This document shows, piece by piece, positions 1-48,003 of a stretch of 64,000 bases of DNA (position 1 is its first letter; each line of letters opens with the position of its first letter). The notes beneath the pieces were generated by a model. That model was given only the letters and a program-made list of their open reading frames with translations. It was not told the origin of the DNA and made no database searches. This DNA comes from Lunularia cruciata (lineage: Eukaryota; Streptophyta; Marchantiopsida; Lunulariales; Lunulariaceae), in the NCBI GenBank assembly GCA_948567375.1, contig OX419756.1:46452333-46516332 (forward strand), written 5' to 3'. Position numbers and translations under genes: made by a program.

Positions 1-1560
1 GTGGAGGCTATTTCATGTATTCTTTGGCCTACAAATGTGAGTAGAGTGCAAGTATTCCTTGGGTTACAACCTTATTTCACCAATATGTAAGAGGATTGAG
101 TGAATTGCTAAGTTCTTTATCAAGCTTACACATGATAGTTGTTGGGAAGATGAGCAGGAGAGAGATTTTATAAAGCTTAAGCAAAGGTTGATATCTACCC
201 CTATTCTTATGAGATCAATTGAGGATATAGATTTTAGGTCCATACTATTTGGAGTACTTTGGAGCTTGGAGCAATGCCTACAATAGGATGATGAGGGAAA
301 GGAGTTTGAGGTGAGGAAGAATGCTAAGCAATAGTGTGGGCAGTAGCACATTTTTTATTTTACCTATTTGGTAGTCTCTTCATTCTCATCATTGATCATC
401 AACCATTGGTAAAATGGTATGAATACCAATGTATGGCAGTTTGTTGCTTGATATAAGAATGAGTTATAGCATCATTCAATGCTCCTACACCACAATTATA
501 CCCACTAATTACCCTTGGATTGTGTAACCACCAGAGTTTGCTTTTTGTTAGACCTTTATCACTAATTGTGAGACAATATTTCATATGTTTTAGTTATGGT
601 TGAGCACTTCTCCAAATGGATTATTTTGGTGGCACTTCCCAACAATTCCAATTAAGGTAAATCTTACTCATTCTTGGATTCAATTCTTATTCATTTTGGT
701 GCACAAACTAAGGACTTGATTGATCAGGTTATAAGGTTTGTATGAGAGTTTCAAATCTTGTTTTTCTAGGTCTTGATTGATCATTGTACTACCTCCCAAT
801 GTCACCTTGAGGTAGATGGCTTAGTGGAGAGAGTGGTTCAAATGGTGAAGAAGGGATTGTGTAATTATGGTTTGTAAAGAGGCCACTTGGAAAATTAGAT
901 CTCCAATTACCTTGGTTGGCTATGTACTATGAGTTCATTTGGCAAGTCTCCCTATCATCCTTCTCTCCCTACTTCTTACTCTATGGATGAGATCTGTATT
1001 TACCTAATAGCATTAGTTGTGATGTAACTATAGTTTTGGACTTGGATGATCCAGATATATCCGTGAGCACATGTTCTCAAAGAGTAGAGATCTTTCAACA
1101 AGTGGTACCAATGACCTTTGAGACCTTAGTGATTGCTCAACATAGGGATACCTTACATTATGCCACTATTTAAGGAGGAGGTTATAGATTCTTGATATGC
1201 TGGTTCCATCTAGGTGATTATCTGTATCTATAGTAAACTACAACAACTCTTGATGTAACTATAGACCACATTATCTTAGAAGTGTACAAGTTTTGCCTTT
1301 GGAGGACATGATGGTGTGTTTTAGAAGGATCATGTGCACAATTTTGTGCCATGCTACCTCCTAAAAATTTATGGCATGATAGACCCCAACTTGGCAATAA
1401 AACATATTGGCTTGTAGTGTATTTTATGTGGCTCTTTCAGTGGAGCTATTACATTGGTGTGTGATAGCTATTCAAGAAGATGGCATATTTGACCCCTTCC
1501 CTTATGATGAATCCTTAGGGGCAGTGGTTATGTCCTTCATATATTTGATGCTATAGCTAG
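1..1560 (+). pseudogene. pol fragment: RT tail, RNase H, integrase, PHD finger (copy D)
   Basis: Bases 1-60 align with the thumb/connection region of reverse transcriptase in copy A (22554-22613). RNase H follows to about 440 and integrase to about 1300. The integrase zinc-binding region is badly deleted around 430-500. At 1418-1493 the frame reads C-I-L-C, a glycine-rich stretch, C-D-S, R-W-H: the first half of the PHD finger seen in copies B2 and C. Several TAG, TGA and TAA stops and indels interrupt the frame, so this is a dead remnant. Integrase would insert the cDNA; the PHD finger would read histone H3 tails. Confidence 0.75.
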
Positions 1561-1734
1561 TCTACTCTTATGTGATATTGATTGCAAGTATGTGAATAAC
1601 AATAGGATTTGATAGAAACCAATCTTGTGATCTTTTCTCATCATAAGACATATCACATACTTGGAGTAGATTGCTATCTAGAGTGAGATGGACCTAACCT
1701 CAACTAGGGAGGAACTAGTGTGTGTTTGGAGTTT

Positions 1735-1821
1735 ATGTGTAACTTCTATATGAGTTGTGCTTCTATAGTATATGATATTGACAATGATGTATGTTGAGTA
1801 GCTATGTATACGCACAAAAGC
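1735..1821 (+). repeat. Family M 3'-untranslated block, first copy (copy D)
   Basis: A block of about 90-105 bp containing GAGTTGTGCTTCTATA. It lies between the PHD finger and the 3' LTR in copies C (about 50643-50745, minus) and D. In this copy it also recurs after the LTR (2251-2357). Confidence 0.6.
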
Positions 1822-2250
1822 TATCATGGCATTTATAGAATCAAAGCTATTTTGCTACAATGCTGGAGTGATAGTTTTGGTGGTCATCATGTTATCACTA
1901 GTTGCTTAGGGACTACTTAGTGGCAACAAGATATGGTATTTTGTTGACTGATTGCATCATCATTGAACTGCCATTCACCTTATCAAATGTGCCATTATGG
2001 TTGTATTTTTGGCCTCTCCATATGGGGTATACCTCAGAGTGAAGCTCTGGAGAGCTTCACTCTGAGGTATACTTCACTTGATTTCTTCTATGTTGAGCCT
2101 TTGAGCTCTTGGCTATGGTGGACAAAGAATGGTGAGCATCACCTTGATTCTCTTTGCTAGGGTGGATATGCCTTGACTATGTGATCAATACTTGTTTGCA
2201 CTATATATTGAGTTTTTAATATTCATATTTGAGTTTTAATAAATTAATTA
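1822..2250 (+). repeat. Family M 3' LTR (copy D, diverged)
   Basis: Aligns end to end with the 5' LTR of copy A (8193-8643), with the start decayed to TATCATGGC. The part corresponding to the transcription start has become a perfect inverted repeat (2027-2072). The 3' end merges into an AT-rich stretch before the second 3'-untranslated block. Confidence 0.65.
2027..2072. repeat. Perfect 22-bp-arm inverted repeat inside the LTR
   Basis: Arms 2027-2048 and 2051-2072 are exact reverse complements separated by GG. The copy A LTR has only a 10-bp-arm version at the same place (8431-8440 and 8445-8454), so the longer palindrome arose after divergence. The arms duplicate the TATA-like GTATAC in both orientations. 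Confidence 0.95.
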
Positions 2251-2357
2251 TTGTGGGTCTTTGAAGTTTATGTGTGACTTTTGTATGAGTTGTGCTTCTA
2301 TAGGGTATGATTTTGAGAGTAATATATGTTGAGTAGTGATGTATGTATGCACAATAT
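2251..2357 (+). repeat. Family M 3' block repeated after the LTR
   Basis: Starts with TTGTGGGTCTTTGAAG and matches the block at 1735-1821, the one at 48255-48357 and the one at 63353-63455. In all three loci this block directly follows an M LTR. Confidence 0.6.
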
Positions 2358-7480: not shown

Positions 7481-8192
7481 TCATGGTGGCAATATCCAAA
7501 ATTATCATTGCTATGCAAAAACAAATTGAACACCTTACTTGATTGTTGGAAGAACAAGACCATCAACAATTAGAGCATGGAGAGAGAGAGAGGACCATTT
7601 CAAGAAGGAGTGAATCTGATTCCAAACCCAAGGTATTTGAAGGTAAGAATCTATTGGGTGCAAAGGAGAATTGTATATTTGATTATGAAGATTCTTTTGA
7701 GGCTACAAATCTTCAAGATGAATAAAAATAGATTCTCTTAACTTCAAGCCAATTGGATAGAGCAATGAAACTATGGTTTCAATTTTGAGTGGAGCAAGCT
7801 AAATGACAATATGTTGGATCAATCTTGATATGAGAAGAATTAAAGAGTCACACAAGCCATATGAGATCAATTGGCAAGGTTGAAGTAGATTAGTTTTGTA
7901 AGCAGCTATATCATGCAATTCCAAAACACCATTATGCAAATTCTAGATATATTGATGGTGAAGCTCTAGATCAATTTATAGTGACTTGAAGTCATGAACC
8001 AAATTGAAAGTGATTATGCAAGAGCCAAAACAATTGGAGGGAGCCATGCAATTGGCTAAGCATTTTGATTCTTTGGTTATGACAACTTGGTCTTGACCCC
8101 AACCTTCACAAAACCTATCAACACATTACACATAGGTGGAGGATTTGGAACCAATGGAGATTGATGCCATCCAATAAACACCACTTGACACA
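7481..8192 (+). pseudogene. gag fragment of element H
   Basis: The frame at 7543-7725 shares SKPKVFEGKNLLGAKE and FEATNLQDE with the gag of element G (reverse strand, 60700-61150), so it is the N-terminal half of a gypsy gag (virus-like particle protein). Stops follow at about 7726 and 7785. The sequence resembling the rest of gag continues in broken frames to 8192, where copy A begins. No zinc knuckle is left. Confidence 0.65.
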
Positions 8193-8420
8193 TGTCACGC
8201 CATTTGTAGTTCCGCATCTAGCTGCTCGGACACTGGAGTTCAAGTGATAGTAGTTAGAGTTATTCTAGCAGTTTCTCAATGACTACTTTTTGACAGTCTG
8301 ATTTGGTGTTCGGGGTACTGACTTCACGGTGGGGCCCACCGTCACTTTGGACCGTTCGCACCGTCGAGTGTGCCATCAGCGGGACCATTAGGGTTTCAGT
8401 GCTAGCTCAAGTCCAGGGGG

Positions 8421-8427
8421 TATAGTT
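8421..8427 (+). promoter_or_regulatory. TATA box of the family M LTR
   Basis: TATAGTT, 29 bp upstream of the inferred transcript 5' end at 8450. In B2 the equivalent TATACT (43054) lies 30 bp upstream of the equivalent position. Confidence 0.55.
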
Positions 8428-8430
8428 TCA

Positions 8431-8454
8431 AAGTGAGCTCCAGAGAGCTCACTT
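8431..8454. repeat. Inverted repeat across the inferred transcription start
   Basis: AAGTGAGCTC (8431-8440) and GAGCTCACTT (8445-8454) are exact reverse complements with a 4-base CAGA loop. This is the precursor of the larger palindrome in copy D. Confidence 0.85.
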
Positions 8455-8460
8455 CTCTGA
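8450..8460 (+). promoter_or_regulatory. Inferred self-primer at the RNA 5' end
   Basis: CACTTCTCTGA is the exact reverse complement of the 11 bases that follow the LTR (8644-8654); pairing extends 3 bp into the LTR end (8461-8463 with 8641-8643). In Tf1/sushi-type elements the first 11 bases of the RNA fold back on the primer site and serve as primer after cleavage. The position about 30 bp after a TATA box agrees with this being the transcript start. Confidence 0.65.
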
Positions 8461-8643
8461 TGTTGAGCCTTCGAGTTCTTGGCTATGGTGGATAGAGGCT
8501 GGCGAGCGTCACCTGGATTCTCTATGCTTGAGTAGGTGTGGCTTGACTGTAATCAATGCCCAATTGTTGGCAATTTATAGAGTGATAGATCAAGTGCTGA
8601 TCTGAGTTGAGTTGAGTTGAAAGTGGTAAGCAATCTGATTACA

Positions 8644-8654
8644 TCAGAGAAGTG
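8644..8654 (+). other. Self-complementary primer binding site
   Basis: TCAGAGAAGTG directly follows the LTR terminal CA, where a tRNA primer site would be. It does not match the initiator-Met or Glu types used by the other families here, and pairs perfectly with 8450-8460. Confidence 0.65.
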
Positions 8655-9062
8655 AAGTCAAGGGGAAATCGGGTGCAGGAACATTCAGTGTTGGTGGTAT
8701 CTCCAAGCTCGGTGGATCGTGGTAGCTTGATTCAAGTTCTGGGTTTCCCTAGTGTGCAGAAGCTCGTTCAATTGATTCAGATTTGGCAATTAGGCGGATG
8801 GTGTGCGGAAGCATTGGCCAAATTTCGAGCAAAGAAGGAGCAATTTTTTAGCAGTGTTGTGATTTTGAGCTCAAGAGGTGAATGCAGGTTCAATTTGCTA
8901 CGAGTTAGGCTCAAAAAGTGAAATTGAAGGTGGAGTTGGGAAGCTCTTCTCATGAAATTATGATTTGGCAAAACCCGTTTTGTCAATTTGGCTCGAGTGG
9001 AAGCCAAATTGCGGGGGATTTGGCGGACAACCATCTTTAGGGTTTACGTCAAATTTTACGTC

Positions 9063-9185
9063 AGATTTTGGGCCAGATTTGGAGGAGTTTTTGCTGTTTG
9101 GCCAGATTTGGAGGAGTTTTGCTAGTTTGGAGGACTTTTGTAGGTTTGGAGAAGTTTCGCCAATTTTGGAGGAGGTTTCGAAGTG
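9063..9185 (+). repeat. GATTTGGAGGAG repeats in the leader
   Basis: Four to five diverged units of about 25-30 bp, each with a TTTGGAGGA or TTTGGAGAA core. The same motif recurs in the B2 leader at about 43721-43830. Confidence 0.7.
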
Positions 9186-9354
9186 GCAACAAGAAAGGCC
9201 TCATTTGGCTGAATTTTGGTGTTTTGAGGCTTCGAGGCATAGGGCTATGAAGGCCTAGAAAGGCCAGCAAGCCAGCTTGCTGGCGTGAGGCTAGCTAGTT
9301 TAGAGTAGATCTTGGTCATTGGTTGGCAAAATCTGCCTTTCTTGCTAGATTGTG

Positions 9355-9440
9355 CGCAACAAGGTTTGACCTCTAGATCTCTTGTTCTTAGACTGGTGCC
9401 CTAGCCAACTGGTCCACCCTCACTCGTTGTCCTAGTGACT
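9355..9440 (-). other. tRNA-like segment in antisense orientation (degenerate)
   Basis: On the minus strand the sequence reads TGGACCAGTTGGCTAGGG (D-arm/A-box-like) followed about 30 bases later by AGGTCAAACC (T-loop/B-box-like). A second D-arm-like piece, GTGGCGCAGTCACTAGG, lies just upstream on that strand. The anticodon stem does not pair, so it is not a functional tRNA. The segment is conserved in B2 at about 44015-44102. Confidence 0.35.
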
Positions 9441-10030
9441 GCGCCACTATTATCTATACACATGTAGCTTTGGCTAGGAGAGGCAGTTTGATCCCATTCT
9501 TGGTGATCCTGGTAGCTTAGGACTTAGATACGGACTGCTCTTATGTCAAATGCCAAATGGTGGCAGAGTCAGTCCCGTGTTGTGTTATGAGATGAAGGGT
9601 TTTGGTTTAGATTTCTTGTGATTGGATCCCCTCCATTCTCTACTTCCTGTTTGTGCACCACGTTTGTGTGAGGTGCCCTGACTTTTGAGCATTGGTGCTC
9701 TGGTGTGCTCTTGGTGGCGAGGCTGGAGTGATGACCAGTCAGACTACCTTTTTTTCTCTCCGATGAGGCAGGAAGTGATGACCTACAGACCGTGAGAGTG
9801 CGTGTTATGATGGTAGGTTATAGGTTGCCTTTCCCATAGTGTAGTTATCTCGGTTAGAGTTACATTAGTGGGGGGTGTCTAGTTGGTGTTGGCACGTGGT
9901 GGTGTTAGCACTTGGTGGGGCACTTGCGGTTGCAACTTGCGGTTGCAGTTGGTGGTTCGGGTTTGCTGTTGCAGTTATGTGGTCACGACGGAGTTCTTTG
10001 GAGATTCCAGAGGAGTTAGCCCTACAGTAC

Positions 10031-17163: not shown

Positions 17164-17167
17164 AAAA

Positions 17168-17859: not shown

Positions 17860-17863
17860 GTAC

Positions 17864-18905
17864 GCAGTGGGTTTACTCGGAGTGGTGCTCGGTATCAACT
17901 TGTATCTCAGGTCCTAGTGAGGGAGGAGATTGACTCTGAGTTAGAGTTTGACACAAGAGCTGATTCAATTGAGAGTGCACTTGGTGTGTCCGCACCGTTG
18001 TTGTGGGACATGGACGAGATTTATGGGGCCTCCAAAGGCCCTAAGCGTTACTCTGTTACAATGGGTACCATTGAGTTAGATGACTTCATCCAGGAGTTCA
18101 AGTTCATGGAGGATGAGGTGGTAGAGGTGGTGGTAGAGGATCTACACCTAGTAGGGGTGCAGTACCTGCCCTTACTTCTGACACAGCTATGGCTACTCGG
18201 ATTGAACAGTTGGAGCAAAGATTGGCTAGTATGGCTATTGCTCAAAGGAGATCAAATTGGGTGTTGAGGCTTCCACCTCATATGTTGGTGATAGAGATGC
18301 TTTGGACTTCATGTGCGGAGCAGCATAGGTGGATGCATCTGCAGTAGTGACTAGGAGTGCAGTACGTGCTCCAGAGCGTAGAGGAGCATCAGTGGAGTTG
18401 GACCCACAAAGAGGAGAGGTTGGGAGACAGGTCAGACTTCCCCAGTCTTTCACGCTATCTGAGGCATTGCAGACAACATCCATGGTTCCTAGACGTCCCA
18501 GTGCAGGTGTGGTAGGTGGTGATGGAGTACATGATGGACTACCTACTAGTCAACCACCTACTACTACACAGACTGAGTCTAGCATGATGTTGGGGGCAGC
18601 TCAGTTGATTATGCGGCATCTTTTGTTTTCAGCCAGTGACATGTTTACATTGGGGGTTGACCCAGCCCCAATGTTCCGGTTGGCTACCATGTTGTGTGAG
18701 AGTAGGGATGGTGCAGTTCCTACTACTAGAGCAGATGTGGTTGGTAGTGGAGCTAACTTGGTTGAGGAGCATGGGATCCGTTCAGCGACCAGTGGTTTAT
18801 GGCAGGCAGCAACGGCTAGACTAGAGGAGTTGCCAGCTAGACCGGCCTTTGAGAGAGCGCGGTTTACACCTGGTGTTGTCCTATTGGATAACCAGAGGGG
18901 GATTT
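17864..18905 (+). pseudogene. gag of family M copy A, internally deleted
   Basis: Resumes after the family-I insertion. The peptide EEIDSELEFDTRADSIES and the following PLLWDMDEIYGASKGPKRY match B2 at 44160-44340. At about 18105 the sequence jumps from IQEF to a Gly-rich segment that B2 has at about 45345; about 1 kb of gag, including the zinc knuckles kept in B2, is missing. Downstream the peptide runs through a frame change to NQRGIF at about 18900, where one base is missing relative to copies B1 and B2. Gag would form the particle; this copy cannot. Confidence 0.65.
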
Positions 18906-18909
18906 TTGG

Positions 18910-19365
18910 TTGGTGGGACCTTTAGGGAAGGTCTATACACCACAGGGACCTTTAGGGAAGGTCTATACACCACAGAGAGTCTTGTTAGACTCTGGTGCGC
19001 AACCCCTTATGTTGGGGAAGGCTGTAGTTGTCGGTCTGGAGTTACGGAAGACTGATGTGGAAAGGTGTCCATTTCAGATCCAGACATCTCTAGGTGGTGG
19101 TTTGACACAGTACATCACACGTGGAGAGCTTGTTGTCCTGGTTCAGCCTGGTCATCCGACTGATAGCTTGGTGGTGAGAGCTCAGGTTATTGCGAGGATA
19201 GTTGAGTCATATGATGTGCTAGTTGGGGGAGCAGTGTTATACCCTATGGGTTTCAGCATTGACTATTGGGAGGAGACAACCTCTTATGGACCTGGTTGGC
19301 AGTCTGGTGAGGGACGGGTACGTCGCCTACCAGTACGCTTTAGTAGTGGCAGTCTTGGCTCACTA
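18910..19365 (+). pseudogene. Aspartic protease of family M copy A
   Basis: LLDSGAQP at about 18977-19000 is the D-S-G active site; the following PLMLGKAVVVGLEL fits a retropepsin fold. It would cleave the polyprotein. The frame is open to a TAG at 19366-19368; in B1 that position reads as sense, so the TAG is probably a C-to-T change of CAG. The same frame continues into the methyltransferase. Confidence 0.75.
18912..18974 (+). repeat. 31-bp tandem duplication before the protease
   Basis: The segment encoding GPLGKVYTPQ occurs twice in a row in copy A, and once in B1 (about 38400) and B2 (about 46118). The added length of 31 bp shifts the frame and partly offsets the base missing just upstream. 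Confidence 0.85.
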
Positions 19366-19584: not shown

Positions 19585-20982
19585 GCTTGGAGTGGAGCCT
19601 TTGTACTATCACGAGATGAGTGTGAGGATAAGCCTCAAGAGGCGATTGCTTTGACACCTCTGGATACCACACTCATTGCTTGGCAATATCCAGTAGAGGG
19701 GATATGTCTATTGGAGTTGTTTGGTGGGATCAGCACCGGACTAGCTGCGGTGTTACAGGTGAGTATACGAGTACAGAGGTACTTGTATGTAGAGAGAGAT
19801 GAGACTGCTAGGCAAGTCTCTCTACATCATGTGGCACACTTGGCCTATCGGTATCCGGAGTTATTACCGATATCAGCAGTCAGAGGTTACCAAAAGGCCT
19901 TACCAAGAGACATTTCCTTACTGGGGGCGCATGACCTAGAGAAACATGGGCCTATTCACTTGGTGATTTTTGGATGGCCATGTCAGGGACATACACATGC
20001 GGGCCGCGGTTTGGGTATTCAGGATCCTTGTTCTGGTGTGTTTTGGGAGATGTTACGGATACTACGACATCTCCAGGTTCATCAGTCTACTTCTCTAGCT
20101 TACCTTTTGGAGAACATTCCATTGATGGGTGATTCTCGCACTAGAGTGGTGGCGAGTACACATCAGGTCCATTCATGGATGGGACCTGCTGTATTGTTAG
20201 ATGCAGCCAGAGTGGGATCACGGGCTCATCATCTTCATCTTTGGTGGACGAACCTCTTACCCAGAGAGGTTCTACAGCGTAGTTATGATGGGATTTAGCG
20301 ACTAGACCACATTCTTGTTGATGATCACTTGGATGCTGGACGTTAGTCTCACACAGTGGTAGTGGCTGATAGGTCACCTATGGCAGTGGTGAACCTAGTT
20401 GGACAGCCTAGAGTTGCATTTCCCACACTCATGAGTTTCCCAAGCTCTCATGCTTTTCGAGAGGGAGGACCTGGACTTGTTTGGGACTCACAGTTACAGT
20501 AGTTGGTGGAGCCCAATGCTGATGAGAGAGAGCAGGCGATGGGTTTTTGCACCAGAATTACCGCTGTTCCAGTAGTGTCAGAGGCATCTAGGCGTCAGGT
20601 GTTAGGTCAGGCTATGGACCTAAACTGTTTGACCTGGATTGTGAGCCTTGGCTTGGCAGAGCAGCGTAGGATGCGCTTGATAGGCATCACCACTCAGACA
20701 CTTGTGAGCCTTGTGCCTATCAAGACGATTCAAGCACATGCTGGGGGCGATGGACCGAGTGGACATGGTATTCTTGGGACACATCCAATAGCTACTAGGG
20801 AGAGTGGTCTACTTGGAGTCCATCCAGGTGAGCGTGTGCTACTTGGATTACACCCTTGGTCCACATGGGATGCAGCTAGAGGACGTGTGGAGCTTGCAGC
20901 CAGAGTGGAGGGAGTTTTTCACACAGAGGTTGGGACTTCTAGTGGTCGGGAGCATGACACTATTGCTCCCAAGGGCCCAGTG
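19585..20982 (+). pseudogene. DNMT3-type cytosine-5 DNA methyltransferase in pol (copy A)
   Basis: In frame with protease and reverse transcriptase. Motif I is LLELFGGISTGLA (about 19708-19746), the S-adenosylmethionine site. YVERDE follows, then motif IV with FGWPCQGH, whose catalytic Cys codon is TGT at 19981-19983. Motif VI is LLENIP (Glu-Asn at 20110-20115), motif VIII/IX SRAHHLHLWWTNL (about 20218-20256), motif X EREQAMGF and RRQVLGQAMDL (about 20527-20640). The order I, IV, VI, VIII, X is canonical; plant DRM enzymes are circularly permuted, so the closest type is DNMT3. Motif X spacing also resembles DNMT3. Predicted reaction: transfer of methyl to cytosine C5 in DNA. Stops TAG at 20296, 20344 and 20500 break the frame; the first is sense in B1. 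No reader domain is seen next to it. Confidence 0.85.
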
Positions 20983-20999
20983 TAGTAGCCAGTCAGTAC

Positions 21000-21691
21000 T
21001 GTAACACCCATTTGTGCATGTGTGTGGTATTGTGATATTTAGCTTGGTATTACAAGTACTTAAGAGATATTATTTATATAGAGATAAAGGATGGTTCTAT
21101 ATTAGTCATGGTTAGCTAAAGTTAGTCATAGCTAAGATAGATGGGACCTTACTTTAGAGGAAGTAGAAAAGATGAGCACCACTATTTTGGATTTTAGTGT
21201 GTTGACTTGGTATTATTCCTAGGTGTTTGGCTTTGAGGAAAGAGTTGAGAACTCTTGGGCCCGCAAGCCTTTTTGTTTTGGATTCTTCTTTAGTCCAAGG
21301 ATAGCCCATGTGAAGGAATCCTTGACTTAGTGGTTGGGTCAAGATAAGACCACATGCTTAGGGGAATATGCCCATGTGAATGGATATTCCTTTCTACTTT
21401 TTGACTTTACTTGACTTTTAGTCTAGTAACTTGAGTTACTATGGTAATTAGTAACTTTGGTACGTAACTATTTCACAAGTATATAAACAAGGGGTGAGGA
21501 GGTACTCAACATCCTTTCATTTGCAACTATCTCTCTCTCATTGAGTTCTCTAGTGAGCAATGTCTTGAGTCTTGGAGTGTTAGCCTTGGAGGAGTATGAT
21601 GGAGTTGGGTTTCCTTGCCTTCTTAGTCCATGGTGCGCTACCATAATAGCCATCAGAGGTTCACCCTGAGTGAGAGACAGGCCGGCTCACA
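21000..21691 (+). repeat. Solo family I LTR, 692 bp, in M copy A
   Basis: A complete LTR from TGTAACACCC to GGCTCACA, flanked by GTAC (20996-20999 and 21692-21695). It is left after recombination between the two LTRs of an element. The target CAGTACG is the same seven bases hit by element 1 at 10025. Confidence 0.95.
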
Positions 21692-23068
21692 GTACGTCTT
21701 CCACTCCTACTACAATTACAGGGGATACTTGGGAGCCAGACCTTGGACCCAAGCTTACTAGAGAGGAAAGATAGAGGGTTTGGAGGTTCTTGAGGAGTCA
21801 CACAAGTTGTTTTGCCTTTAGTATGAAGGATTTGGGTGCTCTGAAGGGACCTGGTATACGGATTGAGCTGACTAGCAACACACCAGTTTTCCGACATCCT
21901 TATCGATATAGTGAGATAGAGAGGACATTGATTCAGAGCCGGAGTAGTGACCTCTTTGAGGCTAGTTTGGTGGAAATTTCACATGGAGAGTATGCATCAG
22001 CAACAATGATGCCAGCCAAGAAGGATATGCATGGCAACTATACAGATAGGCGGATGTGTGGAGATTACCGTCCTATCAACCGACAGACCAGGGCTGATTG
22101 GTATGCCATGCCTACATCAAAGGGAGATTTTTGATGCGATTGGGCATGCAAAGGTCTTCAGTACTTTGGATCTTCGAGCGGGATATCATCAGTTGCCGAT
22201 CAGGGAGGAGGATAAGTCCAAGACAACATTTTGGGCTATTGATCCTCACGGCAAGGATGTGTTATATCAGTGGAGGTTCTTACCATTTGGGTTGAAGAAT
22301 GCTCCTGCTGAGTTCCAGAGGGTCATGGATAGGATCCTAGCTAGATTGGATTTTGCTCGGTGCTATATTGATGACATTTTGGTTTATAGCACTATTGTGG
22401 AGGAGCATGAGAGACAATTATTGGAGGTGTTTGAGAGGTTGAGATCTCATGGACTCAAACTACATCTTGGGAAGTGTAGGTTCTTCCACAAGCAGGTTGA
22501 GTGTTTGGGTCACACTATCTACCCCGGAGGACTTGGTGTCCAACAGACCAAGGTGGAGGCTATTGCACGTATTTCTCGGCCTACGGATGTGAGCAGAGTG
22601 CGAGCATTCCTTGGGTTGGTGAACTTCTATTGCCACTATGTTAGAGGATTTAGTGCCATTGCCAAGGCCTTGACGAGGCTGACCAAGCTTACACAGGAGT
22701 GGTGTTGGGGAGATGAGCAAGAGAGGGCTTTTGTAGAGCTCAAGGAGAGGTTGACATCTGCTCCTATTTTGAGGAGACCAATCAGGGGACGACCATTTCA
22801 GGTTCACACTGATTGGAGTATGTTGGGACTTGGAGCGGTGCTCACCCAGCATGATGATGAGGAGAAGGAGTTTGTGGTGGCCTATGCTAGTCGCTCCAAC
22901 AATTCAGCGGAGGCAAAGTATAGTTCATATGAGGGAGAGTGGTTGGCAGCAGTTTGGGCAGTAGCACATTTCCAATGTTACCTATTTGGTAACCTCTTCA
23001 CTCTCATCATTGATCATCAGCCGCTGAAGTGGTTGATGGAGTCCGACAAGCTTTCAAGGAAGCTTGCA
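21692..23068 (+). pseudogene. Reverse transcriptase and RNase H of family M copy A
   Basis: The RT N-terminal part is open from 21790 (VFRHPYRYSEIERT, MMPAKKDMHGNYTDRRMCGDYRPIN). A one-base insertion at about 22115 relative to B1 shifts the frame. The second frame, to 23068, has LDLRAGYHQLPI, LPFGLKNAPAEFQRVMD and the catalytic YIDD (CYIDDILVYS, about 22360). Connection (LGHTIYPGG, RAFLGLVNFY) and RNase H follow, with VHTDWS, SYEGEWLA and IDHQPLKWL for the D-E-D residues. A TGA at 23069-23071 stands where copy C has CGA (Arg). Function: RNA-templated DNA synthesis and RNA removal. Confidence 0.9.
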
Positions 23069-23071
23069 TGA

Positions 23072-24555
23072 TGGGCTCTGATTTTACAAGAGTATGATTT
23101 CACGGTTGTTCATAGACCTGGAGTGGTGAACCGTGATGCAGATGGGTTGAGTAGAAACCCATGTCCCAGCCAGCAAGATCAGACCGGAGCACGTTGGCAT
23201 GGTGAGACAAATGAGGAGATGGTGCCAAGTTGGCATGCATTGGCCTTTCTGTGTACATTTGCAGAGACTTTGGTGGTATCTCTCTCAGCGCATGCAGGAG
23301 GAGTTATTGAGGTCACAGATCCAGAGAGTGAAGATATCAGTACAGTTCAGCAAGACATTCATGATGATGTCTTAGTGATGGACTATCTTCACATTGGTGT
23401 TGTGGGTGGCATAGTTGGGGCCAAGGAGAGAGACCGTGTTCTTCAGCGAGCCAGACGGTGCAGATTGGAGGGTAGACATCTTTTGCGTGTATGGGAGGAT
23501 GGTAGAGTGTGAGTAGTACCACTTCCATCTCAGAGACCACAGTTGGTCCGTCATGCTCATGAGGAGCTAGTACATTTTGGAGTAAAGCGTACATATAGCT
23601 TACTCCAGAGTCATTATTGGTGGCGCGGTATGCAGACCAAGGTACAGCAGTTTGTTGCCAGATGTGTGGTTTATGACTGAGTTAGAGCATCATTCAATGC
23701 TCCTACGCCATAGTTACACCCATTACCTATCATGGGATTGGGTTACCGTTGGAGTTTGGACTTCACCGGACCTTTACCGCTAACTGTGAGACATCATCGG
23801 TATGTTTTGGTGATGGTGGAGCACTTCTCCAAGTGGATTGAGTTTGTGGCACTTCCTTACAAGTCTAGTGAAGGGATAGCTTACTCGTTCCTGGATCAAG
23901 TTCTTAGTCATTTTGGTGCACCAGTTGAGGTTTTGATTGATCAGGGTATAGAGTTCTTGGGAGAGTTTCAGGTCTTGTGTGACAAGGCTTTGATTGATCA
24001 TCATACTACATCCCGAGATCACCTTGAGGCAGATGGCTTAGTAGAGAGAGTGGTTCAGACGGTGAAGAAAGGATTGCAAAAGTTAGGTTTGCAGAGAGGC
24101 CACTTGGGAGATTGGGATCTCCAATTACCTTGGTTGGCCATGGGCTATCGGTTCAACCGGCAAGCCTCCTTAGCATCCTTCTCTCCATACTTTCTACTCT
24201 ATGGACAAGATCCCGATTTACTTGCAGCCATTTGTTGAGATGCTACTGTAGTTTTGGACTTGGATGACCCCGATGTATGGATGAGCGCATGTTCTCAGCG
24301 GGCAGAGATCTTTTGGAGAGTGATGCCGATGGCCTTTGAGAACTTGGCGATTGCTCAGCATAGAGATAGTTTATGCTATGTGACCATTCGAGGAGGAGGT
24401 TATAGACCCTTGATCCGTCGATTTCATCCAAGCGACTATGTATATCTACAGCAGACAGCACCGACGACACTTGATGTTTCTACAGGCCACACTATCTTGA
24501 GAGTGCGCGTGGTTTTGCCATCTGGAGTCCTTGTGTTAGAAGGACGTGATGGATA
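23072..24555 (+). pseudogene. Integrase of family M copy A, 3' end lost
   Basis: Zinc-binding domain: HAHEELVHFG at about 23552 with ARCVVYD at about 23648, where copy C has ARCVVCD, so one ligand Cys is lost. Core domain: WSLDFTGPL (first Asp, about 23755), LIDQGIEF (second Asp), GLVERVVQ (Glu, about 24045). C-terminal part: FHPSDYVYLQQ at about 24420. Stops TGA at 23512-23514 and 23679-23681 and TAG at about 23711 occur where other copies have Arg or Gln codons. Homology ends in EGRD at about 24553, just before the PHD finger, at the junction with element E. Confidence 0.85.
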
Positions 24556-26440: not shown

Positions 26441-26469
26441 TGAGCCAGTAAGGCCGCAAGGTACCTTAA

Positions 26470-35960: not shown

Positions 35961-36693
35961 TGTAATACTCCGAGGACAAGAGAAGAGAGAAAACACAAAT
36001 TGCACACTCAAACATTCGATGCCCCAAGGGAGCACCTTCTCTTTATTATATAGACAAAGAGGATCTCCTCCAAGGAAGCTCCACCATAGGATTAGGGACA
36101 TAGATAGGTGATATGTCAGCAAGTTCCACCCTTGGATTACTTACTTGGATGGGTGACATGTCTGGTCTAGGTCCTATCTGGTTGGTCAAACAAGCTTTGA
36201 CCGGAAGGAATCTTTTAGGGAATCTTCCTGTAGGAATCTCAAAATCACATGAGTAAGGTACCATTGGAAAGCTCTTGACGAGACAAAGCAGGGGGGAGGG
36301 AAGGCCAGCCTTTCCTCCATTGGGGGGAATCTACACATTTTTTAGGCCTAATCCGTTTAGGCCTCCAAAATTGCCTTCAAAGATTTCAAGCATATTTTGG
36401 TTCCTAATCTATTAGTAGAAGTCCCCTTTTGGTGATATCTCTTTCTGATCTATTTAGTCCATCATGTGTAACATCCTTCTAGATGTTACCAAACTAATTC
36501 TCACCTTTAAATCATATGTCTAGCTATTGGTTCTAAGGTTCTCAAGTCTATTTCGGTTTTTTCCCTATTAGTAGAAGTACTCTTTTGGTGATACTTCTAT
36601 CTTATCTATTTTGACCGTCATGTATAACATTATTCTAGATATTACCAAACCAAATTTCACATCTAGATCATATGGCTAGCTCTTGGTATTATA
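35961..36693 (-). repeat. 5' LTR of element E, 733 bp
   Basis: In element sense it starts TATAATACCAAGAGC (TG decayed) and ends GGAGTATTACA. Matches the LTRs of F at 48357-48838 and 62389-62970. TATA-like TATATAA occurs at about 36036-36042. Confidence 0.85.
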
Positions 36694-38395
36694 GAGAGCT
36701 TACTTGGAAGAGACTGAGCTATGGAGAAAATATTGGTCTCTAAACTACATCTCTATCACTTCAAGCTCAATTGCTATGGGTAGATCGGCAATACCCACAA
36801 GTTCTAGCTCTAGTAGCATTGGTGGATCTAATAGAGGTGCATTAGTTGGAGATGGTGTTATTCAAAGTGGGAGTACAACTACAAGAGGTAGTGCAATATG
36901 AGGGTTTAACCCCATAGTTGAGTTCTTCTAGTGCTTGAGGCAAAACTACCAAGGAGTAAGGACTTACAAGCTAAGGAGCTTACAATTAGTTGGAAAGCTA
37001 GAGAGAGCCTATGCAAGGTATACACTCATATGAGTTGGTTGATCAATTTCACTCAAGGAGTTATTGAGGCTAGGTATTCCAATTTTGGTATGGGATATTG
37101 GACAAGGAGTTGCAATGTAGAGTACGTGATGTTATGTTTTTATAGGCTACTTCACCTACTTTGATAATGATCTTTAGTTTGGCTAAGCATATTGATCTAA
37201 ACATAGTGGAGGAGAGAGTGGTGATATTTGGATTTGGTAAAGAGACCTCATCTATAGCTCTCACTTCTTCTAGAGTGCAATAGACTGCACCATGCCATGT
37301 TGGCTTCCAAGAATACAATGAAAAGCCCAAATCCTATAGAGCAAGTGGACGGCCTAGTGTAGCTAGACCCTTACCTTCATTTTCAAGTCAACAACAACCA
37401 ATGAGTAGTGGTGTTGGTTGTTGCACTTTTGGTGGAACTCATCACAAGAAAAAGTACATAAGATAGTAGACATGATACCTCTAGTGCATCACAACCAACA
37501 TAGAGATAATATGACCATTGCTAGAAATTTGGTCATACTAGTGAGCAATGCTTTGACCTTCATCCAGAGTTACGGAATGGTAGGGCTATTATGGCAAGTG
37601 GTAGAGGAGGTCTAGGTCCTAAAGGACTAGGTGGTAAAGGATCCACACTTGGTAGGAGTGTAATACTTGCTATTGCTTCTAATATAGCCATGGCTATTTG
37701 AATTGAGCAAAGATTGGCTAGCATGGCCGTAGCTCAAAGGAGATCAGATTTGGGTGCTGAGGCTTCCACCTCTTATGGTGGTGATAAAGACATCTTGGAG
37801 TTTATGTGTGGAAATACTACAAGTAGATGCATCTACCATAGTGACTAGGAGTGAAATATTTGGTGCAAAGCCTAGTGGAGCATCATGGAGTTTGATCCAC
37901 AAAGAAGAAACACGTTAGACACAAGTTAGACTCCCCCAATATTTCACACTCTCTTAGGCATGACATATGACATCCATGGCTCCTAGTGAAAGTGTGGTAG
38001 GTGGGGATGGAATGCCTGATAAACTAGATGCTAATCAACCACCTATTACTACACAGATTGATCTAGGATAATGTTAGAGGCAACTCAATTGATCATGCGC
38101 TTCACTTTGTTGTCAACCCATGACATGTTTCCATTTGGAGTTGATCCAACTCTAGTGTTCCAATTGGCTGCCACACTTTGTGAGATTAGGAATGAAGTGG
38201 TTCTTGCTTCTAGAGTAAAGGTGGTTGATAGTGGAGCTGATTTGGTTGAGGAACATAGGATCCTCTCAACAACCAATGGTTTTATGGCAAACAACAATAG
38301 CTAGATTAGACTAGTTACCAACTAGACCTATCTTTGAGCAAGCTTGGTTCATACCTAGAGTTATCTTATTGGATAACCAAAGGGGGATTTTCTAT
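36694..38395 (+). pseudogene. gag of family M copy B1
   Basis: Recognised by alignment with B2 (44455 onward): the regions near 36694-36900, 36931-37164 and 37400-37615 follow the same order. A knuckle-like TFGGTHHKKK remains at about 37425. The last part (38071-38304) holds LLSTHDMFPFGVDPTLVFQLAATLCE, matching copy A. Many stops and indels; no product expected. Confidence 0.7.
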
Positions 38396-38981
38396 TTGGT
38401 GGGACCTTTAGGAAAGATATATTCATCACAAAGTGTCTTATTAGACTCTAGTGCATAGCCCTTTATGTTGGGGAAAGCTATAGTTGTTGATTTGGAGCTA
38501 CAAAAGATCTATATGGAGATGTGTCCATTTTAGATCCAAATATCTCTAGGGGTGGTTCTACACAATATATCACATGCGGAGAGCCATCACACATCTAGAT
38601 TCAGCCAACTTATAGCTCTATGGTGAGAGCTCAAGCCATTGCAACAATAGTAGAGTTCTTCAATATTGACTATTGGGAGGAGATAGCTTCTTATAGACCA
38701 GGTTGGTAATCAAGTAAGAGATGGGTATGTTGTCTTCTAGTATGTTTTAGTATTGGCAGTCTCCGCTTACTACATCAAGAACCATGGAATCAGTTTTTAG
38801 TGGTTTTGTTACTTGGCCTTATGACTTATTAAAGGAGAATGCCCATGCAAAGGATACTCCAATACCAAAGGAGATCACTTGGATTTGGAGTACAAGTGGG
38901 GTTGTTCTATCCACCTTGGATGTTCCATTGTGGAGTTCTAAGGAGGCATTGAAGCAACATGTAGATCAATTTTTACAATAA
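38396..38981 (+). pseudogene. Protease and linker of copy B1
   Basis: Protease active site reads LLDSSA instead of LLDSGA at about 38440. The linker 38784-38981 keeps VTWPYDLLKENAHAKDTPIP and ends at TAA (38979-38981), the codon at which copy A has TAG. Confidence 0.7.
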
Positions 38982-40330
38982 GGTTGGAGTGGAGCCTTTC
39001 TACCACCAAGAAACAAGTATGAAGATGAGCCTTTAGAGTCTATAACCTTGTCACCTTTGGATACCCATTGCTTGGCAATATCCAATAGAGGGAGTATGTC
39101 TATTGGAGTTGTTTGGTGGGATTATCATTCAACTAGCTACAATATTATATATATGTATGCAAGTACATAGTTACCTACATGTGGAAAGAGATGAGACTAC
39201 TAAGCAAGTCTCTTTATATCATATGGCACACTTGGCCTATCAATAACATGAGTTATTACCTATGTCTATAATTAGGGGATTACTAAAAGACCCTATTGTT
39301 AGACATTTCCTTATTGGGGATGTAAGAATTGGAGAGACATGGTCTTATTCATTTGGTCATTTCTAAATGGCCATATTATGAACATACTTGAAGATTTTTG
39401 TTTTGGTGTGTTTTGGGAGATGTTATGTATACTTTGACATCTCTAGGTTCATTAGTCTATTTCTCCAACCTACATTTTAGAGAACATCTCTTTAATAGAT
39501 GATTCTTGTACTCAAGTGGTAGCAAGTACACATCCAATGGTTGGGACCTATGGTGTTGTTGTATGCAACAAAGTGGGATCATAAGCTTATCATCTTCATC
39601 TTTGGTGGACAAACTTCTTACCTCAAGAGGTTCTATAATGTGCTTATGATGGGATTTATCAACTAGACTACCTTACTATTGATGACATTTTGGATGTTGG
39701 GTACTAGTCTTAGATGGTGGTAGTAGTTGATAGGTCACCTATGGCCGTGGTGAACCTTGGTGGATAGCCTAGAGCCACTTTACTCATAGTTTACCAAAGC
39801 TCTCATGCTTTTCAAGAGAAAGGTCTTGGACTTGTTTGGGACTCATAATTATAGTAGTTAGTGGAACCCAATGCCAATGAGAGGGAGTGAGTGATGGGTT
39901 TTTGTATTGGTATTACCGTTGTTACAACAATATCAACAACATCCAAACATCAAGTCTTAGATCAAGCTATGGACCTAAATTGTTTAACCTAGATTGTGAG
40001 CCATGTCTTGGCAAAGCAACATAGGATGCACTTGATAAGCATCAACACTTAGATACTTGTGAGCTTTGTGCCTATCGAGATGATTCAAGCACATGCTAGA
40101 AGTAATGGACCAAGTAGAGAGGTATTCTTGGGACATAACCAATAGCTACTAGTGAGAGTGGTCTACTTGGGGTCTATCTAGGTGAACATAATCAACTTGG
40201 GTTACATCCTTGGTTTAGTTTAGATGTAGCTAGAGGATGTATAGAGCTTGCAGCCAAAGTAGAGCGAGTTGTCCACATTGAGGTTGGGAACTCTGGTGGT
40301 TTAGGCCATGACATTAGTGCTCCCAGGGCT
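38982..40330 (+). pseudogene. Methyltransferase of copy B1, catalytic Cys lost
   Basis: Motif I is partly kept (LLELFGG at about 39097). Motif IV reads K-W-P-Y-Y-E-H: the catalytic Cys codon is TAT (Tyr) at 39374-39376. Motif VI L-E-N-I is kept at about 39478. Motif VIII/IX region LHLWWTNFLP remains at about 39595. Many stops and indels. TAG codons at 39705 and 39855 match stops in copy A, while the copy A stop at 20296 is TAT here. No activity possible. Confidence 0.8.
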
Positions 40331-41527
40331 CCAATCAATATGTCTTCTACTCTTACATCAATTACATAGGGTACTTGGGAGCCAGATATTGGACCCAAGT
40401 TTACAAGAGGGGTAAGACAAAGAGTTTGGAGGTTCTTGAGGAGCTACACAAGTTGTTTTGGCTTGAGTATGAAGAATTTGGATGCTCTAAAAGGATCTGG
40501 TACTTGGATTGAACTCATTAGTGATACATCAGTTTTTTATGTCCCCATAGATATAGTGACATGGAGAGAGCATTGATTCACAACTAAAGTAAAGACCTTT
40601 TTGAGGCTAGTTTGGTAGAGATTTTGCATACAGAGTATGCTTCACCTACAATGATGCCAACCAAGAAGGATATGCATGAAAACTACACAAATAGGCAAAT
40701 ATGTGGAGATTACCGTCTTATTAATTGATAGACTAGGGCTGATTGGTAACTCAACTTGCTCATGGAAAAATCTCACTTCCCAAGATATAATTTGAGTCCA
40801 TGAGATCTCAATCTTAAAACACTTCCAACAAATGTCTCTCATGCTTGTCTATAATAGTGTTGTAGACCAAAATGTCATCAATATAGCACCAAACAAAATC
40901 CAATCTTGCTAGGATCCTATCCATGACCCTTTTGAATTCAATATGAGCATTCTTAAACCCAAATGGTACAAACCTCCACAAATATAATACATCCTTACCG
41001 TGAGGATCAATAGCCTAAATTGTTATCTTGGATTTGTCCTCCTCCTTGATTGGTAATTGATGATATCTTGCTTGAAGATCCAAAATACTAAAGACCTTTG
41101 GATGCCCAATTGCATCAAAAATCTCCTTCATTATAGGCATGGCAGTATTTGGAGGTCACACTATCTACCCTAGAATACTTGATGTTTAATAGACCAAGGT
41201 AGAGGCTATTGCATGTATTCCTTGGCCTACATATGTGAGTAGAATTCAAGGATTCTTTGGGTTAGCAAACTTCTATCACCAATATGTTAGACAATTTAGT
41301 GCCATTGCCAAGACCTTGACAGAGCTGACCAAGCTCACACATGAAAGGTGTTGGGGAGATGAGCAAGAGTGAGCTTTTATAGAGCTCAAGGAGAGATTCC
41401 CATGTGCCTTTATTCATAAGAGACCATTAGAGGACGACCATTCTAAGTTCACACTGATTGGAGTATGTTGGGGCTTGGAGCAATGCTCATCCAACATGAT
41501 GATGAGAGGAAGGAGTTTATGGTGGCC
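40331..41527 (+). pseudogene. RT of copy B1 with internal inversion
   Basis: RT N-terminal residues up to the region equal to copy A 22100 are on the plus strand to about 40746. The piece 40747-41143 is on the minus strand: its complement reads MPIMKEIFDAIG and on to the segment equal to copy A 22490. From 41144 the plus-strand order resumes (WRSHYLP, FFGLANFYHQYVRQFSAIAKTL) into RNase H. The YIDD region lies within the inverted piece. Confidence 0.8.
40747..41143 (-). repeat. Inverted segment within B1 RT (about 400 bp)
   Basis: Only this stretch is reversed relative to copy A; both breakpoints fall within RT and nothing obvious is missing. The inverted sequence matches copy A 22107-22499. 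Confidence 0.85.
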
Positions 41528-42219
41528 TATAACACCCATTTGTGCATGTGTGGGGTATTGTGATATTTAGCTTGGTATTACAAGTACTTGAGAGGTATTA
41601 TCTATATGGAGATAAAGGATGGTTCTACATTAGTCATGATTAGCTAAAGTTAGTCATAGCTAAGATAGAGTGGACCTTACTTCAGAGGAAGTGGAAAAGA
41701 TGAGCACCACTATTTTGGATTCTATTATGTTGACTTGGTATTATTCCTAGGTGTTTTGCTTTGAGGAAAGAGTTGAGAACTCTTGGGCCTGCAAGCCTTT
41801 TTGTTTTGGATTCTTCTTTAGTCCAAGGATAGCCCATGTGAAGGAATCCTTGACTAAGTGGTTGGGTCAAGATAAGATCACATGCTAGTGGAATACGCCC
41901 ATGTGAATGGATATTCCTTTTTATTTTTTGACTTTACTTGATTTTTAGTCTAGTAACTTGAGTTACTATGGTTATTAGTAACTTTGGTGCATAGATATTT
42001 CACAAGTATATAAACAAGGGGTGAGGAAGTACTCAACATCCTTTCATTTGCAAGTATCTCTCTCTCATTGAGTTCTCTAGTGAGCAATGTCTTGAGTCTT
42101 GGAGTGTTATCCTTGGAGGAGTATGATGGAGTTGGGGTTCTTTGCCTTCTTAGTCCATTGGTGCGCTAGCATAATAGCCATCAGAGGTTCATCCTGAGTG
42201 AGAGATAGGCCATCTCACA
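41528..42219 (+). repeat. Solo family I LTR in B1
   Basis: 692 bp, starts TATAACACCC (TG decayed) and ends ATCTCACA, flanked by GGCC at 41524-41527 and 42220-42223. Splits the RNase H of B1. Confidence 0.95.
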
Positions 42220-42776
42220 GGCCTATGCTAGTTGCTCTAACAACTCAATGGAGGCAAAGTATAGTTCATATGATAGAGAGTGCTTGGAAGTAGTATGGTT
42301 AGTAGCACATTTTTTATGTTACCTATTTTGTAACCCCTTCACTCTCATCACTAATCATCAACCACTAAAGTGGTTGATGGCATCTAACAAGCTTTCAAGG
42401 AAGCTTGCATGATGGACCTAGATTTTAAAAGAGTATGATTTCATGATTATTCACAAATATAGAATGGTGAGCTATGATGTAGATGGGTTGAGTAAAAACC
42501 CATGTCCTAACCAATAGGATCATATCAGCGCATGGTGAGACAAATGAGGAGATTGTGCCATGTTGGCATGCATCTAATTTTTTATGTATATTCTTTGAGG
42601 CTTTGGTGGTATATCTCTCAACACATACAAGAGGATTTATTGAGGTCACAAATCTAGAGGGTGGAGATATTGGTATAGTTCAACAAGACATTATTTCTAC
42701 ATTGGTGTTGTGGGTGGCATAATTGGTGCCTAGGAGAGACACCATATACTTTAGCAAGCCATGCAATTTAGATTGC
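42220..42776 (+). pseudogene. RNase H end and integrase start of B1
   Basis: NHQPLKWLMASNKLSRKLA at about 42353-42410 matches copy A RNase H, followed by a TGA at the same CpG-derived codon. The region 42640-42776 matches the spacer before the integrase zinc domain and stops abruptly. Confidence 0.75.
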
Positions 42777-42825: not shown

Positions 42826-43277
42826 TGTAACTCTATTTGTAGCTTTGCACCTAGATTGCTCAGACTCTAGAGTAGTAGTGTTGGTAGTCATGACTAATTT
42901 GGTAGTTACTCATAGAGTACTTGTTGACGGTCAGATTTTTGTTTGGGGTATTGACTACATGGTGAGGCTCACTGTCACTTAGCACCATTTGCACCATCGG
43001 ATGTGCCGTCAATGGGACAGTTACAATTTGAGACCTAGCTCAAGTTGAGGGGGTATACTTTCAAAGTGCAACTCTAGAGAGCTCACTTCTTTAATGTTAA
43101 GCCTTTGAGTTTTTGGCTATGGTATATAAAGATTGGTGAATATCACCTAAATTCTCTTAGCTAGAGTAGGTGTGCTTTGATTGTAATCATTGCACAATTG
43201 TTTGCAGATTATGGCATATCAGATCAAGTACTGATCTAATTGAGTGTGATTTGAGTTGTATAAACGAATTGATTACA
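42826..43277 (+). repeat. Family M 5' LTR (copy B2), 452 bp
   Basis: Starts TGTAACTC and ends TTGATTACA, aligned over its full length with 8193-8643. TATACT at 43054 and the inferred self-primer CACTTCTTTAA at 43084-43094 keep the copy A spacing. Confidence 0.8.
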
Positions 43278-43288
43278 TCAAAGAAGTG
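43278..43288 (+). other. Self-complementary primer binding site (B2)
   Basis: TCAAAGAAGTG pairs with 43084-43094 at 10 of 11 positions. Relative to copy A one C-to-T in the primer is matched by a G-to-A in this site. Confidence 0.6.
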
Positions 43289-44165
43289 AAGTAAGGGCAC
43301 ATTGGGTGAAAGGACTAAATGTGTTGGTGGTATTTCCAAGCCTTGTTGATTGTTGGTAGCTTGATTGTGATCTTGAGTTTCCCTAAAAGTGATCATGTGC
43401 AAAAGATCTTTGAATTGATATAGATTTGGCAATGAGGCAAAAGGTGTGCAAAAGCGCTCGCCAAATTTTGTCCAAAGAGAAGTAGTTTTCAGGTGGTAGT
43501 TGTGATTTTAAGCTCAAGAGTGCAAGCAAGACCAATTTGGTGCAAGTTGAGCTCACCTTGGAATTGAAGGTGGAGTTTGGAACCCATCTCGTGAATTTGT
43601 AATTTGGAGAAACCCATCATTTCAATTTTGCTCAAGTGGAGAATTAGCGGAGGATTTGGCAGTCAGCCAACTTTAGGGATTTACATCAGATTTTTGTTGG
43701 AGTTAATGTCAGATTTTGGCCAAATTTGGAGGAGTTTTTTCAGATTTGGAGAGGGTTTGAAGTGGCAGATTTTGGCTCAAGTTGGAGGAGCTTGGTCAGA
43801 TTTGGAGGATTCTTGCCAAATTTAGAGAAGTCTCAAAGTGGCAAGAAGAAAGGCTTCATTTGGGCACTTAGAGGCTTTGAGGTAGAGGGTTATGTGCTAT
43901 GAGAGGTTACAAGGGCCAGATAGCCAGCTTGCTAGGATAATGCTAGCTAGTTTAGAGTAGATTTTGGTCATTGTTTGGCAAAATCTACCACCCTTGCTAG
44001 ATTGTACGCAATAGATCTTGACCCTTAGAGCTCTCGTTCCTAGACTAGTGCTCTAGCCAATTGGTCCACCCTCACTTGTTGTCCTAGTGATTGTTCCACT
44101 ATTATCTATACACTTGTAACTTTGGCTAGGAGAGACAATTTGATCCCATTTTTGGTGATCCTAGT
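43289..44165 (+). other. Leader of family M copy B2
   Basis: Homologous to 8655-9520 of copy A, with GATTTGGAGGA repeats at 43721-43830 and the antisense tRNA-like piece at about 44015-44102. Lacks about 500 bp present in copy A before gag. No supported gene. Confidence 0.6.
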
Positions 44166-46170: not shown

Positions 46171-46174
46171 GTGT

Positions 46175-47927: not shown

Positions 47928-48003
47928 ACTTGACCTATAGCTAATCCATGTATGAGTTATGTGTGAGTTATGCTTTTATAATGTGTGATGTTGACATCGA
48001 TGT

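What the first reader, a model, noticed from the sequence alone, without database searches (positions are those of the whole stretch)
19585..20982. A DNMT3-type DNA methyltransferase built into the pol frame of a Ty3/gypsy element
Seen: motifs I, IV (Pro-Cys-Gln with catalytic Cys at 19981), VI, VIII/IX and X in canonical order, lying between protease and reverse transcriptase and in the same frame as both once the solo LTR is removed. The order excludes a straight capture of a plant DRM, which is permuted. Known, from memory: retrotransposons carrying cytosine methyltransferases have been reported in dinoflagellates and charophyte algae; I know of no established family with this layout and a PHD finger. 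Inferred: the enzyme could methylate the element's own cDNA or host DNA.
Basis: partly seen in the sequence, partly recalled or inferred. Interest (0 to 1): 0.95.

Follow-up and report, generated by a model that had tools for sequence, protein, structure and literature searches.

The report
DNA methyltransferase inside liverwort-type retrotransposon
A broken copy of a jumping gene, found in hundreds of copies in this genome and with relatives in mosses, liverworts and green algae, carries its own DNA-methylating enzyme next to its particle proteins; a similar case was reported in one green alga in 2018, but the spread, the enzyme's place before a leaky-type stop signal and the details of its ends are additions.

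Summary

Both refutation tests failed to refute it. The genome gives 150 full-length MTase matches (the scoring cap) and 819 matches to an MTase/RT junction pattern. Relatives are named from Marchantia, Calypogeia, Riccia, Sphagnum and Closterium.

Corrections: the MTase is on the Gag-protease side of an in-frame stop (UAG CAG CCA, the type I readthrough motif), not in the RT half. The PHD finger is missing here but ends ORF2 in the three genomic copies examined. The element has split repeats (A1-ORFs-B1-A2-B2), TG...CA ends and 4-bp target duplications. This matches KnitGypsy-Dnmt3 of the alga Klebsormidium (de Mendoza 2018), so the kind is known; land-plant spread, stop, PHD and a second domain order are additions.

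Likely function, unproven: methylating the element's cDNA in the particle. Against a strong CG self-methylation footprint, its CpG depletion is milder than in neighbouring N1.

The parts
8187..8641 (+). M1 5' terminal repeat A1 (begins TGTCACGCC at 8193)
   Evidence: 92% identical to segment A2 of L019; ends of genomic copies
8642..10030 (+). M1 5' region and start of ORF1, cut by the N1 insertion
   Evidence: 9097-10030 is 92.9% identical to L019
10031..17859 (-). Nested LTR element N1, LTRs 99.7% identical, target duplication GTAC at 10027-10030 and 17860-17863
17860..18891 (+). M1 gag remnant (about 1 kb missing near 18098)
   Evidence: zinc knuckle pattern seen in three genomic copies
18892..19365 (+). 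Protease region, DSGAQ motif at 18982-18999 (no Pfam match; named by motif and by relatives)
   Evidence: same motif upstream of the MTase in relatives
19585..20670 (+). DNMT3-type cytosine methyltransferase domain, with TAG at 20296, 20344, 20500
20671..20982 (+). C-terminal tail of ORF1 (weakly constrained, few variants)
20983..20988 (+). ORF1 stop TAG, here followed by TAG CCA (fetched genomic copies: TAG CAG CCA)
21000..21691 (+). Solo LTR of the N family, duplication GTAC at 20996-20999 and 21692-21695
21692..23071 (+). ORF2: RT and RNase H (frameshift near 22100)
23072..24552 (+). Integrase (rve); copy truncated at 24552, PHD and 3' repeats missing
36693..42692 (+). Second, older copy M2 with the same order; MTase stretch within 38659-40333, 77% nt identity, decayed, an inverted piece at 40749-41144, own solo LTR 41530-42220
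42826..48361 (+). Copy M3, protease, MTase and RT deleted; PHD remnant 47706-47930
50200..52860 (-). Copy M4 fragment (RNase H, integrase, PHD 51144-50920, A repeat)
1..2352 (+). Old copy M5 fragment (RT, integrase, PHD remnant, repeats)

Best explanation
M1 is a dead copy of an abundant, recently amplified retrotransposon family with Ty3/gypsy enzymes. ORF1 is gag-protease-DNMT3 MTase, ORF2 is RT-RNase H-integrase-PHD, separated by an in-frame UAG CAG CCA. Shown by sequence: the domains, their order, the stop, signs of constraint on the MTase, split repeats A1-ORFs-B1-A2-B2, TG...CA ends and 4-bp target duplications. Inferred: the stop is read through at low rate, so MTase is made in amounts like Gag and is packed into the particle, where it methylates the cDNA before integration; the PHD finger helps choose the chromatin site. 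Also inferred: the repeat unit in replication is B-A, and the integrated form is opened at the B/A junction, as from a two-repeat circle.
For: Fold and sequence. Genome copies: 150 full-length matches (scoring cap) and 819 matches to a junction pattern with the stop codon left open, reversed control 0; of the 100 junctions listed 96 read TAG, 3 TAA, 1 TTG. All 20 fetched copies have TAG CAG CCA, 16 of 20 in register with the MTase start; UAG CAR YYA is the type I motif (PMC3542737, passages). Of 21 ORF1-type proteins looked at, 11 carry the tail motif HPWxxW and end 38-45 residues after it; the own copy L009 ends 44 after it. Constraint on shared variants (N/S ratio): MTase 0.24, RT-RNase H 0.18, protease 0.20, gag 0.33, integrase 0.42, tail 0.89. 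Of 204 database proteins held, 35 have both motif IV and motif X; 35 of 35 keep the EN of motif VI and 32 of 35 HRxR of motif VIII. Repeats and ends: (five of six copies with upstream pieces show the 5' end; those five have 4-bp duplications). PHD in 3 of 3 ORF2s examined. Retrotransposon MTases stand apart from human and host cellular DNMT3, 100/100. Two SymbioDIRS-Dnmt3 enzymes methylate CG in yeast (PMC5890265).
Against: CpG observed/expected is 0.46 on average in 20 copies and 0.35-0.51 in three M1 parts, against 0.14 and 0.13 in N1 and N2 and 0.09 and 0.15 in two window flanks, not what strong CG self-methylation predicts. The nearest published relative, the Klebsormidium enzyme, showed no activity in yeast (called inconclusive there). 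No RNA structure supports the stop site (one copy folded, z 0.5). The 20 copies were chosen by MTase match, 12 of them also for long frames, which biases. None of the 20 copies has both ORFs fully open. Ten of the 21 ORF1-type proteins lack the tail motif: P0103 and P0112 end 78 and 36 residues after LGQAMD, seven distant ones 118-149, and P0119 and P0128 do not match (of these last, P0128 and P0119 have neither motif).
Confidence: 0.6

Rival explanations
1. The MTase acts in trans, on host chromatin or on other elements, to disguise the element or redirect silencing, rather than on its own cDNA.
For: Many copies; a chromatin-reader-type PHD in ORF2; Dnmt3-carrying elements coexist with an unusual methylome in Symbiodinium (PMC5890265).
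Against: Placed in the Gag-protease ORF, which argues for particle packaging; the Klebsormidium methylome is like that of land plants.
Confidence: 0.2
2. The domain is kept for nucleic-acid binding or RNA methylation, not for making 5mC in DNA.
For: No activity of the Klebsormidium enzyme in yeast; CpG not strongly depleted; P-to-E change in motif IV of 7 of 204 database proteins held, against 144 with WPCQ and 53 with neither.
Against: Motif IV WPCQ nearly invariant in a 39-row alignment; motifs VI and VIII kept in 35 and 32 of 35 proteins with motifs IV and X; N/S ratio close to that of RT.
Confidence: 0.15
3. A recent capture of the host's own DNMT3 or DRM gene.
For: The host genome has intron-split DNMT3-like exons at C7:31989816 (L043).
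Against: 28% identity to that gene against 69-73% to MTases of Calypogeia, Marchantia, Sphagnum and environmental P0107; 100/100 branch between cellular and retrotransposon MTases; DRM is permuted and scores far lower.
Confidence: 0.04
4. ORF2 is made by reinitiation or splicing rather than stop readthrough.
For: Some Marchantia and Riccia gene models (P0109, P0110, P0113, P0097) join MTase and RT with residues missing in between, as if spliced; a Met stands just before the RT in ORF2.
Against: Same frame on both sides and a perfect CAR-YYA context.
Confidence: 0.2

Closest known systems
KnitGypsy-Dnmt3 (Klebsormidium nitens; de Mendoza 2018, PMC5890265)
   Same: Non-rearranged Dnmt3-type MTase in the polyprotein of a Gypsy element; DIRS-like repeat arrangement with Gypsy domains; purifying selection reported there, indicated here
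   Different: Here hundreds of copies in a genome whose nearest relatives are liverworts; MTase before a leaky-type stop, with Gag-protease; PHD at the ORF2 end; 4-bp duplications shown.
SymbioDIRS-Dnmt3 (Symbiodinium)
   Same: Dnmt3 domain in a retrotransposon polyprotein; two domain orders coexist; DIRS-type repeats
   Different: Tyrosine recombinase there, DDE integrase here
Cellular DNMT3A/3B and plant DNMT3
   Different: 25-35% identity to DNMT3A over the rows; no Pfam ADD or PWWP match beside it; separate 100/100 branch
Type I stop readthrough of tobacco mosaic virus and kin
   Same: UAG CAR YYA
   Different: Readthrough not tested here

Membership tests
DNMT3-type C5 methyltransferase domain | PF00145 with motifs I-X in order, not permuted | tested here: met
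DNMT3-type C5 methyltransferase domain | Closest to DNMT3 by sequence and fold among solved C5 MTases | tested here: met
   (fold: model of relative P0001)
DNMT3-type C5 methyltransferase domain | 5mC activity | not testable with these tools
   bench assay needed
KnitGypsy-Dnmt3 kind | Dnmt3 MTase in a Gypsy-type polyprotein | tested here: met
KnitGypsy-Dnmt3 kind | DIRS-like repeat arrangement with Gypsy domains | tested here: met
   five of six copies; the sixth, L012, has no matching 5' end
KnitGypsy-Dnmt3 kind | MTase under purifying selection (Ka/Ks under 0.2 reported) | tested here: inconclusive
   shared-variant ratio 0.24, copies chosen by match
KnitGypsy-Dnmt3 kind | Same clade as the Klebsormidium sequences | not testable with these tools
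   no row named Klebsormidium in the listed hits
Canonical Ty3/gypsy LTR element | Protease, RT, RNase H, DDE integrase in that order | tested here: met
Canonical Ty3/gypsy LTR element | Two equal terminal LTRs | tested here: not met
   A1 at the 5' end, B1-A2-B2 at the 3' end
DIRS element | Tyrosine recombinase and no target duplication (as recalled) | tested here: not met
   rve integrase; 4-bp duplications
Plant DRM | Permuted motif order | tested here: not met
   order I to X
Type I readthrough site | UAG CAR YYA | tested here: met
   20 of 20 fetched copies; M1 itself reads TAG TAG CCA
Type I readthrough site | Measured readthrough | not testable with these tools
   reporter assay needed

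The most novel reading that the evidence does not exclude
One ancient streptophyte lineage of Gypsy-type elements acquired a DNMT3 once, moved it within the polyprotein (between protease and RT in one branch, between RNase H and integrase in another), keeps it at Gag-like dose behind a leaky stop so that every particle carries a de novo methyltransferase, and integrates from a circle opened inside its repeats, guided by a PHD finger.
Probability: 0.3. Interest if true: 0.82.

Novelty: new variant of a known kind. Interest (0 to 1): 0.63.

Why it matters
Methylation normally silences transposons, so an element that has kept its own methyltransferase across algae, mosses and liverworts must gain something from it. 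Relatives in Marchantia, a genetic model, make the question testable. The Gag-side position gives a concrete prediction (enzyme in particles at high dose), and the split repeats with integrase-type ends raise an open question about how such elements replicate.

Tried and rejected
Chance or artefact: rejected. DRM capture: rejected. Recent host capture: disfavoured. Viral source: Foldseek of the P0001 model against predicted viral proteins found viral C5 MTases (best E 5.8e-15, TM by query at most 0.55), less close than DNMT3 in the PDB look; the IMG/VR scan with P0001 found nothing. RNA structure at the stop: none in the one copy folded. PHD in M1: none in the stop-free six-frame scan of the window. 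DNMT1 and CMT were not among the rows shown by VIA-align; absence there excludes nothing. A type B element in this genome was not tested: the genome search was busy each time. Exact count of TAG among all 819 junctions: busy. Schmid 2018 (PMC5784723, passages) lists five Marchantia DNA methyltransferases in three classes (MET, CMT, DRM) and its text has no 'DNMT3'.

Full report

This copy is broken. It has TAG at 20296, 20344 and 20500, an altered motif VIII, a gag deletion of about 1 kb, a 30-base duplication near 18945, the N1 element (10031-17859), an N-family solo LTR (21000-21691) and no 3' end beyond 24552. Older copies M2-M5 lie in the same window; M2 keeps protease end, MTase and the start of RT contiguous in the same order.

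The family in the genome. The window is C2:46452333-46516332 of a 566-Mb assembly. The MTase query gave 11,651 first-look candidates, of which 150 were scored; all 150 cover the whole query, those other than the window itself at 90-93% identity. I fetched 20 regions (12 chosen for long open frames, 8 others). Six of 20 have a 1428-aa stop-to-stop ORF1 and two of 20 a 1037-aa ORF2; none of 20 has both. In all 20 the ORFs meet at TAG CAG CCA, 16 of 20 in register with the MTase start. Genome-wide a junction pattern with a few degenerate positions and the stop codon left open occurs 819 times (401 and 418), reversed control 0; among the 100 listed places 96 have TAG, 3 TAA and 1 TTG (counted by eye). 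UAG CAR YYA is the type I readthrough consensus (PMC3542737, passages). M1 itself has TAG TAG CCA.

The stop in other species. Of 21 ORF1-type proteins looked at, 11 carry the tail motif HPWxxW (Marchantia P0105, P0106, P0108, P0111; Calypogeia P0104, P0089; environmental P0019, P0026, P0059, P0107 and so on as listed) and end 38-45 residues after it; the own copy L009 ends 44 after it. Measured from LGQAMD, the own tail is longer (127 against 94-100 in six of them). The other ten lack the tail motif; P0103 and P0112 end 78 and 36 residues after LGQAMD, and seven more distant ones 118-149. P0108 and P0111 come from records marked partial. So the stop seems old in the bryophyte-type clade, though DNA of those species was not seen. 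Some Marchantia models and one of Riccia join MTase to RT with intervening residues missing, and P0130 and Closterium P0144 read from MTase into RT as one protein.

Selection. Counting variants shared by at least two copies relative to L019, N/S ratios are MTase 0.24 (17 copies in register), RT-RNase H 0.18 (14), protease 0.20 (19), gag 0.33 (16), integrase 0.42 (10), ORF1 tail 0.89 (16; only 7 variants); private variants give 0.41, 0.46, 0.76, 0.62, 0.72 and 0.83. Copies were chosen by MTase match, which favours intact MTases. Of 204 database proteins held, 35 have both motif IV and X; 35 of 35 keep the EN of motif VI and 32 of 35 HRxR.

Ends and repeats. Upstream pieces were fetched for six copies. 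Five of six begin TGTCACGCC, end CGACA and have 4-bp target duplications, read by eye; for the sixth, L012, no 5' end was found. The 5' end carries segment A1 (about 450-460 bp) alone; the 3' end carries B1 (107 bp), A2, B2 (107 bp). A1/A2 are 97-99% identical in the five, B1/B2 97-100% in the six. B1 and A2 meet as CGACA-GC-TGTCA and a G-rich run lies just before B1. My reading that the integrated form derives from a two-repeat circle is inference.

PHD. ORF2 of L009, L019 and L027 ends in a C4HC3 PHD-type pattern after the integrase. Database relatives P0137, P0139, P0141 and P0142 have PF00628 at the same end, and Marchantia P0133 has PF00628 at its C-terminus.

Relatives and history. Searches listed 102, 47 and 120 (of 242) proteins; the named ones are Calypogeia, Marchantia, Riccia, Sphagnum and Closterium; many others are unnamed. 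Two orders exist: MTase between protease and RT (window, Marchantia, Closterium), and MTase between RNase H and integrase (P0135, P0137, P0139, P0141, P0142; P0136 shows RNase H then MTase, P0138 MTase then integrase). The second type is one clade by MTase (7 rows, 95/98) and by RT (6 rows, 100/99). In a smaller MTase tree (five type B rows) the type B rows were not resolved as one clade. Retrotransposon MTases are split from human DNMT3A and the host's own DNMT3-like exons with 100/100; long branches are in play and no other outgroup was used. One acquisition with later movement of the domain is the simplest reading, but two acquisitions from one unsampled source are not excluded.

Against the functional reading. 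CpG observed/expected averages 0.46 in the 20 copies (0.35-0.51 in three M1 parts) and is 0.14 in N1, 0.13 in N2, 0.09 and 0.15 in two window flanks. If the enzyme set strong CG methylation on every new copy, deeper depletion would be expected; composition and family history may differ. The Klebsormidium enzyme gave no methylation in yeast, judged inconclusive because DNMT3B also failed (PMC5890265).

Prior art. De Mendoza 2018 (PMC5890265; parts 1 and 2 of 7 of the text, sections 9 and 10, and passages read) reported a Dnmt3 domain in the Pol ORF of a Klebsormidium Gypsy element with DIRS-like repeats. A 2025 survey (PMC12344493, passages) mentions only previously reported cases in streptophytes and dinoflagellates. 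Passages of PMC11244446, PMC9516144, PMC10952607, PMC6453930 and PMC5784723 showed no bryophyte case; other papers were seen only as listings. Hence: a new variant of a known kind.

Noticed in passing
10027-10030, 17860-17863, 20996-20999, 21692-21695: Both N-family insertions into M1 have the same 4-bp target duplication, GTAC.
   Followed up: partly
10031-17859, 26748-34560: Two near-identical full-length N elements (97.7%) on the minus strand, with further LTRs or LTR pieces of the family at 41530-42220, near 52866-53711 and at 58817-59433.
   Followed up: partly
L043 (C7:31989816-31990166): Intron-split exons of a cellular DNMT3-like gene in the host genome, 41% identical to human DNMT3A over 153 columns, found alongside the retrotransposon MTases.
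   Followed up: partly
MTase tree: Sphagnum sequences fall among liverwort ones; holding liverworts together is only marginally rejected (AU p 0.045), a weak hint of horizontal transfer or old paralogues.
   Followed up: partly
database proteins, alignment A2: Motif IV reads WECQ instead of WPCQ in 7 of 204 proteins held (P0134-P0137, Closterium P0144, P0146, P0147), an odd change at a usually fixed proline.
   Followed up: partly
7234-8187 and 24607-26569: Other decayed retroelement pieces flank M1, including a primer-site-like TGGTATCAGAGC near 7232 (recalled from memory as initiator-tRNA type).
   Followed up: no
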